A stretch of 64,000 nucleotides of DNA from positions 2,927 to 66,926 of the forward strand of contig JAHEDI010000002.1 in the NCBI GenBank assembly GCA_024641305.1, read 5' to 3'. The position numbers and the translations under genes are program-made. Below, in pieces: positions 29,784 to 30,278 of this stretch. Every line of letters begins with the position of its first letter. Positions within the stretch are counted from its first letter, which is position 1. Under the pieces are notes generated by a model. The model saw nothing but the letters and a program-made list of their open reading frames with translations, had not been told where the DNA came from and searched no databases. This stretch comes from a bacterium (GTDB lineage Bacteria > Actinomycetota > Acidimicrobiia > Spongiisociales > JAENVV01).

Positions 29784-30278
29784 TCAGTATTCAAATGGTA
29801 CGAGGTTCCCATCGGTGGTGATCAGCACGACGGGCTGGGACTCCCAGGTCTCCACGGTCCCGCCCATACCGGCCGAATCAGCCGGCATCCCGGGAAGCGA
29901 CAAACCGACTGCTTCGGGTTGAGTTTCGAGCAACTGCAGGATGGCTCCCACCGGCACATGGCCGACGATCACATAATCCCCGACCAGGGCGGTATGACAG
30001 GAAGACGCCTCCTCTGGAACGCCTTTCGCCGCATTGAACTCCGCCAACAGCGGATCCTCGCTGGTTTCGACTGTCGCTCCGTTGTCTTGTAGGTACCCGA
30101 CCCACTCTGTGCAACACCCTCAGCCAGGTTCCTTGTGTACCGCGAAGGTCAAACCTGACAGTTCGCCCGATGACAGGTCCATCGTCGGTTGAGTGGGCAC
30201 AGGTTCGGTTGACGTGGACGCACACGCCGCCAACATCACTCCCACCACTACGAGGGCAACCCACGAAACGCGTTTCAA
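29784..30278 (-). CDS. DUF411-like metal-binding lipoprotein with in-frame TGA (30120-30122) at the first Cys of the CGCC motif: candidate selenoprotein
   Basis: AGGAGG RBS then TTG start; LKRVSWVALVVVGVMLAACASTS...LTFAVHKEPG[TGA]GCCTEWVGYLQDNGATVETSEDPLLAEFNAAKGVPEEASSCHTALVGDYVIVGHVPVGAILQLL...GLSLPGMPADSAGM; one frame throughout. Confidence 0.7.

What the first reader, a model, noticed from the sequence alone, without database searches (positions are those of the whole stretch)
29784..30278. Candidate selenocysteine version of a DUF411 lipoprotein: in-frame UGA replaces the first Cys of the C-G-C-C motif
Seen: two minus-strand ORFs (30120-30404 and 29784-30047) are in the same frame, separated only by TGA at 30120-30122 and 24 sense codons. 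The joined product has an AGGAGG-TTG start, a signal peptide with lipobox LAAC, then FAVHKEPG-[UGA]-GCC-TEWVGYLQDNG, and a complete DUF411-like tail (EEASSCHTALVGDYVIVGHVP...LPGMP). Known: family members, as I recall them, have VYKxPxCGCCxxW here, so the UGA coincides with the first redox/metal Cys. Seen: 14 nt after the UGA there is a hairpin GTGGG-TCGGGTA-CCTAC (30089-30105) with G residues in the loop, inside a possible outer GTTG/CAAC pairing, compatible with a bacterial SECIS. Inference: the UGA is read as Sec. I do not know whether Sec DUF411 proteins have been reported. A single TGC-to-TGA nonsense mutation is the main alternative.
Basis: partly seen in the sequence, partly recalled or inferred. 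Interest (0 to 1): 0.88.

Follow-up and report, generated by a model that had tools for sequence, protein, structure and literature searches.

The report
Selenocysteine form of CopG copper protein
An apparently broken bacterial gene is very probably intact: its internal stop codon is read as selenocysteine, placing selenium where a known copper-resistance protein (CopG) uses a sulfur to hold copper, a combination I could not find described.

Summary
In detail: window 29784-30278 (-) is one DUF411 lipoprotein gene with one in-frame TGA (30120-30122), at the first Cys of the invariant CGCC motif. The selenocysteine (Sec) reading is very strongly supported. The genome encodes tRNA-Sec(UCA), SelA, SelB and SelD. 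The same TGA stands at the same column in 25 Acidimicrobiia and 14 Acidobacteriota loci, never TAA or TAG; other relatives have Cys. Sequence after the TGA is under purifying selection. A conserved hairpin starts 14 nt after the UGA, with synonymous codons frozen in TGA forms but not in Cys forms. The protein is a CopG homologue (AlphaFold pLDDT 91; best fold match PDB 6WJE/6WIS); all copper-ligand residues are kept, Sec replacing the first Cys of CxCC. In one complete relative genome, two Sec copies sit beside a multicopper oxidase and copper P-type ATPase, or beside a metal ATPase and cytochrome oxidase. A 2026 inventory of 119 prokaryotic selenoprotein families lacks it; databases hold many as truncated DUF411 fragments. 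Sec incorporation and Sec-copper binding are inferred, not measured.

The parts
29784..30278 (-). Sec-containing DUF411/CopG-like lipoprotein gene, TTG start to TGA stop, one internal TGA
30286..30291 (-). Shine-Dalgarno AGGAGG, 7 nt before the TTG start
   Evidence: sequence
30120..30122 (-). in-frame TGA read as selenocysteine; first residue of the U-G-C-C (CxCC) motif
30111..30119 (-). GCC codons of the CxCC motif, conserved immediately after the TGA, ahead of the downstream start codons used by database gene calls
30089..30105 (-). SECIS-like hairpin GUGGGU-CGGGU-ACCUAC (6 bp, 5-nt loop), starting 14 nt after the UGA
29850..29999 (-). rest of the CopG ligand set: conserved Cys-His (SCHT) and Met-x6-Met (PGMPADSAGM)
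   Evidence: ligand roles from PMC7558416 and PMC8456105

Best explanation
The gene encodes an exported lipoprotein of the CopG (DUF411) family in which UGA is decoded as selenocysteine by the cell's own SelA/SelB/SelC/SelD system, directed by a short hairpin right after the UGA. Shown by sequence comparison: the UGA column, its conservation, the hairpin, the decoding machinery, purifying selection and the CopG fold. Inferred: the mature protein sits outside the cytoplasmic membrane and holds copper in a cluster like that of Pseudomonas aeruginosa CopG, with Sec in the place of the first Cys of CxCC, so that one copper ligand is a selenolate. Sec would strengthen copper binding and/or speed electron transfer in the copper oxidoreductase and copper hand-over role proposed for CopG. 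The Sec step alone I hold at about 0.96; the copper step lowers the joint confidence.
For: Machinery in this genome: tRNA-Sec with anticodon UCA (76.3 bits), adjacent selA-selB (SelB 353 bits), selD with its own in-frame TGA. TGA at the same column in 20 of the 22 order-level genomes with a hit, further class-level genomes and Acidobacteriota; never TAA or TAG. SelB above cut-off in 18 of 21 and 13 of 14 such genomes tested. UGA-to-stop length 111-115 codons in 38 of 39 loci, dN/dS 0.07-0.30 in the closest pairs. Codons +7 GTC 22/22 and +8 GGG 17/17 in Acidimicrobiia TGA forms, no such freezing in Cys forms. Hairpin of -4 kcal/mol or better in 39/39 TGA forms against about 31% of Cys forms, without the loop-G rule. 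CopG: PDB 6WIS (E 2.1e-43 with a profile), Foldseek TM 0.81. CxCC, CH and M-x6-M residues invariant in 86 sequences. Copper context in a complete relative genome: multicopper oxidase, MerR-type regulator, copper-translocating P-type ATPase TIGR01511.
Against: No biochemical evidence: no 75Se labelling, mass spectrometry or metal analysis. The window's hairpin is weak and its stability is not exceptional among synonymous recodings (rank 0.11; whole-region z +1.47). Compensatory pair changes are few. In the window itself and at most Acidimicrobiia loci the neighbours are not copper genes, so the copper role rests on homology and on a minority of neighbourhoods. In R. capsulatus the CxCC and Met motifs of CutG were dispensable for multicopper oxidase activity (PMC8456105). 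tRNA-Sec presence does not separate TGA from Cys genomes in Acidobacteriota (my count: 15 of 18 against 19 of 26), because it is common in both.
Confidence: 0.7

Rival explanations
1. The protein is a genuine selenoprotein, but it works as an extracytoplasmic thiol/selenol redox protein (thioredoxin-like), for instance in cytochrome c maturation, rather than as a copper-cluster protein.
For: Thioredoxins and glutaredoxins appear as weak matches in the fold search. The window gene lies between cytochrome bc and multi-cytochrome c genes and near ccmF.
Against: All CopG copper ligands including M-x6-M are invariant. CopG is the only close fold match. Metal or copper gene neighbours occur in G256, G098 and G753.
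Confidence: 0.25
2. A nonsense mutation (pseudogene) or a sequencing error at a TGC codon in this genome.
For: Single base change TGC to TGA; draft assembly; the four same-genus genomes lack the gene.
Against: The same TGA stands at the same column in 39 distinct loci of two phyla, never TAA or TAG; dN/dS after the TGA far below 1; hairpin and codon freezing.
Confidence: 0.02
3. The downstream ORF is a separate small protein started inside the gene (as databases annotate it, 92-112 aa fragments), and the TGA is a real stop.
For: 32 of 62 database homologues are such fragments; a TTG start exists at 30047.
Against: G-C-C right after the TGA is invariant, W nearly so, and the upstream VHxxPG is conserved too; such a product would lack the CxCC motif and the signal peptide.
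Confidence: 0.02
4. UGA is reassigned to an ordinary amino acid (for example Trp) throughout this genome.
For: One in-frame TGA read through.
Against: 25 of 39 TGA-form genes, the window's included, end at TGA; the column is Cys in homologues; full Sec machinery is present.
Confidence: 0.01

Closest known systems
CopG of Pseudomonas aeruginosa (PDB 6WIS, 6WJE), DUF411, and CutG of Rhodobacter capsulatus
   Same: Fold, CGCC motif position, conserved Cys-His and M-x6-M, export signal; multicopper oxidase and copper ATPase neighbours in some relatives.
   Different: First Cys of CxCC is encoded by UGA (Sec); lipoprotein here; Sec form found in Acidimicrobiia and Acidobacteriota.
Known bacterial selenoproteins with Cys counterparts (119 families in PMC13188914)
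   Same: UGA at a Cys column, short SECIS-like hairpin directly after the UGA, SelABCD in the genome.
   Different: DUF411/CopG is not among the 119 listed families; the replaced Cys is a copper ligand in the solved homologue.
Selenoproteins with a metal-bound or metal-handling Sec (formate dehydrogenase Mo/W, NiFeSe hydrogenase; SO_0444 Cu/Zn transporter and CopZ-like entries of PMC13188914)
   Same: Sec at a metal site, shown or predicted.
   Different: Copper cluster of the CopG type in a thioredoxin-like fold; none of those is a DUF411 protein.

Membership tests
Bacterial selenoprotein | in-frame UGA aligned with Cys of homologues | tested here: met
Bacterial selenoprotein | tRNA-Sec, SelA, SelB and SelD encoded in the genome | tested here: met
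   (SelA identified by its sequence and place next to selB, no family scan run on it)
Bacterial selenoprotein | hairpin just downstream of UGA with a G in the apical loop | tested here: met
   conserved hairpin with loop CGGGU or CGUGU about 20 nt after UGA; weak energy; bSECISearch not available
Bacterial selenoprotein | UGA conserved in other Sec-decoding species | tested here: met
Bacterial selenoprotein | selenium present in the protein | not testable with these tools
   needs 75Se labelling or mass spectrometry
CopG / DUF411 (PF04214) | Pfam DUF411 above gathering score | tested here: met
   73.6 bits against 27
CopG / DUF411 (PF04214) | CxCC, Cys-His and M-x6-M residues | tested here: met
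   all invariant, first C as U
CopG / DUF411 (PF04214) | CopG fold | tested here: met
   AF2 pLDDT 91.2, Foldseek TM 0.81 to 6WJE; modelled with Cys for Sec
CopG / DUF411 (PF04214) | tetranuclear copper cluster and copper-resistance role | not testable with these tools
   inferred from homology; neighbourhood support in G256, G098, G753
Pseudogene | relaxed selection after the stop, varied stop codons | tested here: not met
   dN/dS 0.07-0.30; only TGA at the column

The most novel reading that the evidence does not exclude
A natural protein in which selenocysteine is a ligand of a multinuclear copper cluster: a copper-selenolate oxidoreductase or chaperone found in Acidimicrobiia and Acidobacteriota after at least two Cys/Sec exchanges.
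Probability: 0.5. Interest if true: 0.87.

Novelty: new variant of a known kind. Interest (0 to 1): 0.75.

Why it matters
It adds what appears to be an unreported selenoprotein family whose Cys form has a solved structure with the replaced residue in a copper cluster, so the question 'what does selenium do for a copper site?' becomes directly testable by comparing natural Sec and Cys versions. It links selenium use to copper handling in two bacterial phyla known largely from metagenomes. It also shows that databases hold many of these genes as truncated 'DUF411' fragments, which hides the active-site motif.

Tried and rejected
Single-sequence folding energies against synonymous recodings: no overall excess in TGA forms, so stability alone was not used; a restricted hairpin test and codon freezing were. 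The first version of the hairpin test crashed before the Cys sets and was rerun. Codon freezing near the UGA was significant for Acidimicrobiia (p 0.011) but not for Acidobacteriota. tRNA-Sec co-occurrence as a discriminating test: not informative, since Sec decoding is common in both groups. A conserved operon for the gene: none found across 20 neighbourhoods. Papers: none with DUF411 and selenoprotein; CopG with selenoprotein gave 16 papers, none of the ten listed being about bacterial CopG. The JBC 2020 CopG paper is not held, so its content is taken from citing papers. Other Actinomycetota: no TGA at the motif, only Cys forms where it could be read.

Full report
Observation. The minus-strand gene at 29784-30278 starts with AGGAGG-N7-TTG, has a signal peptide with lipobox LAAC, and reads FAVHKEPG-U-GCCTEWVGYLQ... 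to a TGA stop at 29784. The single internal TGA is at 30120-30122. The product is a DUF411 protein (PF04214). Its best solved relative is CopG of Pseudomonas aeruginosa, where the UGA column is the first Cys of CGCC.

Decoding machinery. The genome carries a tRNA-Sec with anticodon UCA, selA directly followed by selB, and selD, which itself contains an in-frame TGA.

Conservation of the UGA. Of 149 relatives searched, 22 genomes (the window's own included) have a homologue; 20 of those show an in-frame TGA at the motif, one has Cys (TGT, L025) and one is a fragment without the motif. At class level two more genomes have it, including a complete 4.97-Mb genome (G256) with two copies. Independently, 14 distinct Acidobacteriota loci that could be read carry TGA at the same column, while other Acidobacteriota have Cys. 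All 39 stops at this column are TGA; none is TAA or TAG. No TGA was found in the 69 Cys loci compared, mostly Proteobacteria, nor in other Actinomycetota. A tree without the Sec column puts the Acidimicrobiia Sec proteins in a well-supported group apart from the Acidobacteriota ones; at least two changes are forced by well-supported branches and the tree needs four, direction not inferable (few columns, quick search).

Translation through the UGA. The residues directly after it (GCC) are invariant, and the upstream motif is conserved as well. Length from UGA to stop is 111-115 codons in 38 of 39 loci, and dN/dS after the UGA is 0.07-0.30 in the closest pairs, median 0.20 over 293 pairs. 25 of these genes end in TGA, so TGA is an ordinary stop in these genomes.

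SECIS-like element. 94% of cells pair at register 0 against 35-63% in slid controls, with one pair changed on both sides in two sequences. Codons in the hairpin are frozen (Val GTC 22/22, Gly GGG 17/17, Tyr TAC 24/25), an effect absent in Cys forms. The L025 Cys form has a T-C mismatch at the closing pair, as expected if the signal is no longer needed. A group of eight Acidobacteriota sequences has a different, longer hairpin (8 bp, 98% paired, one compensatory change). Across groups, 39/39 TGA forms and about 31% of Cys forms have a hairpin of -4 kcal/mol or better at this position (sequences are related, so the p-value is only indicative). Weak point: energies are not unusual against synonymous recodings for the window's own group.

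Machinery in the other TGA genomes. SelB exceeds its cut-off in 18 of 21 genomes, the three exceptions being incomplete (60-79%) assemblies, and in 13 of 14 further ones, including three Acidobacteriota without a clear tRNA-Sec match in the assembly.

Function. AlphaFold2 on 86 sequences gives a confident model (pLDDT 91.2) whose only strong PDB match is CopG. CopG binds a tetranuclear copper cluster through CxCC and two Met, and is proposed to be a copper oxidoreductase or chaperone for multicopper oxidases (PMC7558416; PMC8456105). All these residues are invariant here. In G256 one Sec gene lies next to a multicopper oxidase, a MerR-type regulator and a copper-translocating P-type ATPase, the other between a heavy-metal P-type ATPase and cytochrome c oxidase subunit I; a P-type ATPase and a multicopper oxidase also occur near the genes of G098 and G753. 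In the window the neighbours are a Rieske/cytochrome b complex with fused cytochrome c domains, a multi-domain cytochrome c and ccmF. The copper-ligand role of Sec is therefore an inference from a solved homologue.

Novelty. The 2026 inventory of 119 prokaryotic selenoprotein families (PMC13188914) has no DUF411 or CopG entry; no held paper combines DUF411 and selenoprotein; NCBIfam gave no match. 32 of 62 database homologues are fragments that begin after the UGA. Subscription journals, preprints and supplementary tables could not be searched, so earlier mention cannot be excluded.

Noticed in passing
window 26248-27006 (-): Heliorhodopsin gene (PF18761, 298 bits) close to the selenoprotein gene.
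   Followed up: no
window 27726-29618 (-) and 30495-32594 (-): Large proteins with five or more cytochrome c domains; the second is fused to the C-terminal half of cytochrome b of a bc-type complex. Unusual multi-cytochrome arrangement.
   Followed up: no
window 10698-19794: Four tRNA-Ser genes (CGA, UGA, GGA, GCU) and the large SRP RNA within about 9 kb.
   Followed up: no
L017 (G000:C60:41802-42731): SelD of this genome also has an in-frame TGA, followed by strong hairpins unlike the one in the DUF411 gene.
   Followed up: partly
L189 and L190 (G256): A complete Acidimicrobiia genome holds two Sec-CopG genes, both in metal-handling neighbourhoods.
   Followed up: partly
L042/L044 (G092:C97): A second TGA copy of the gene with a deletion and frame break after the motif, apparently decaying.
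   Followed up: no
L161 (G488, Acidobacteriota): Carries almost the same hairpin (GUGGGU-CGGGC-ACCUAC) as the Acidimicrobiia genes; convergence or transfer.
   Followed up: no
proteins P0011, P0014-P0041 and P0043: Many database DUF411 proteins of 92-112 aa are probably selenoproteins called from internal start codons after the UGA.
   Followed up: partly
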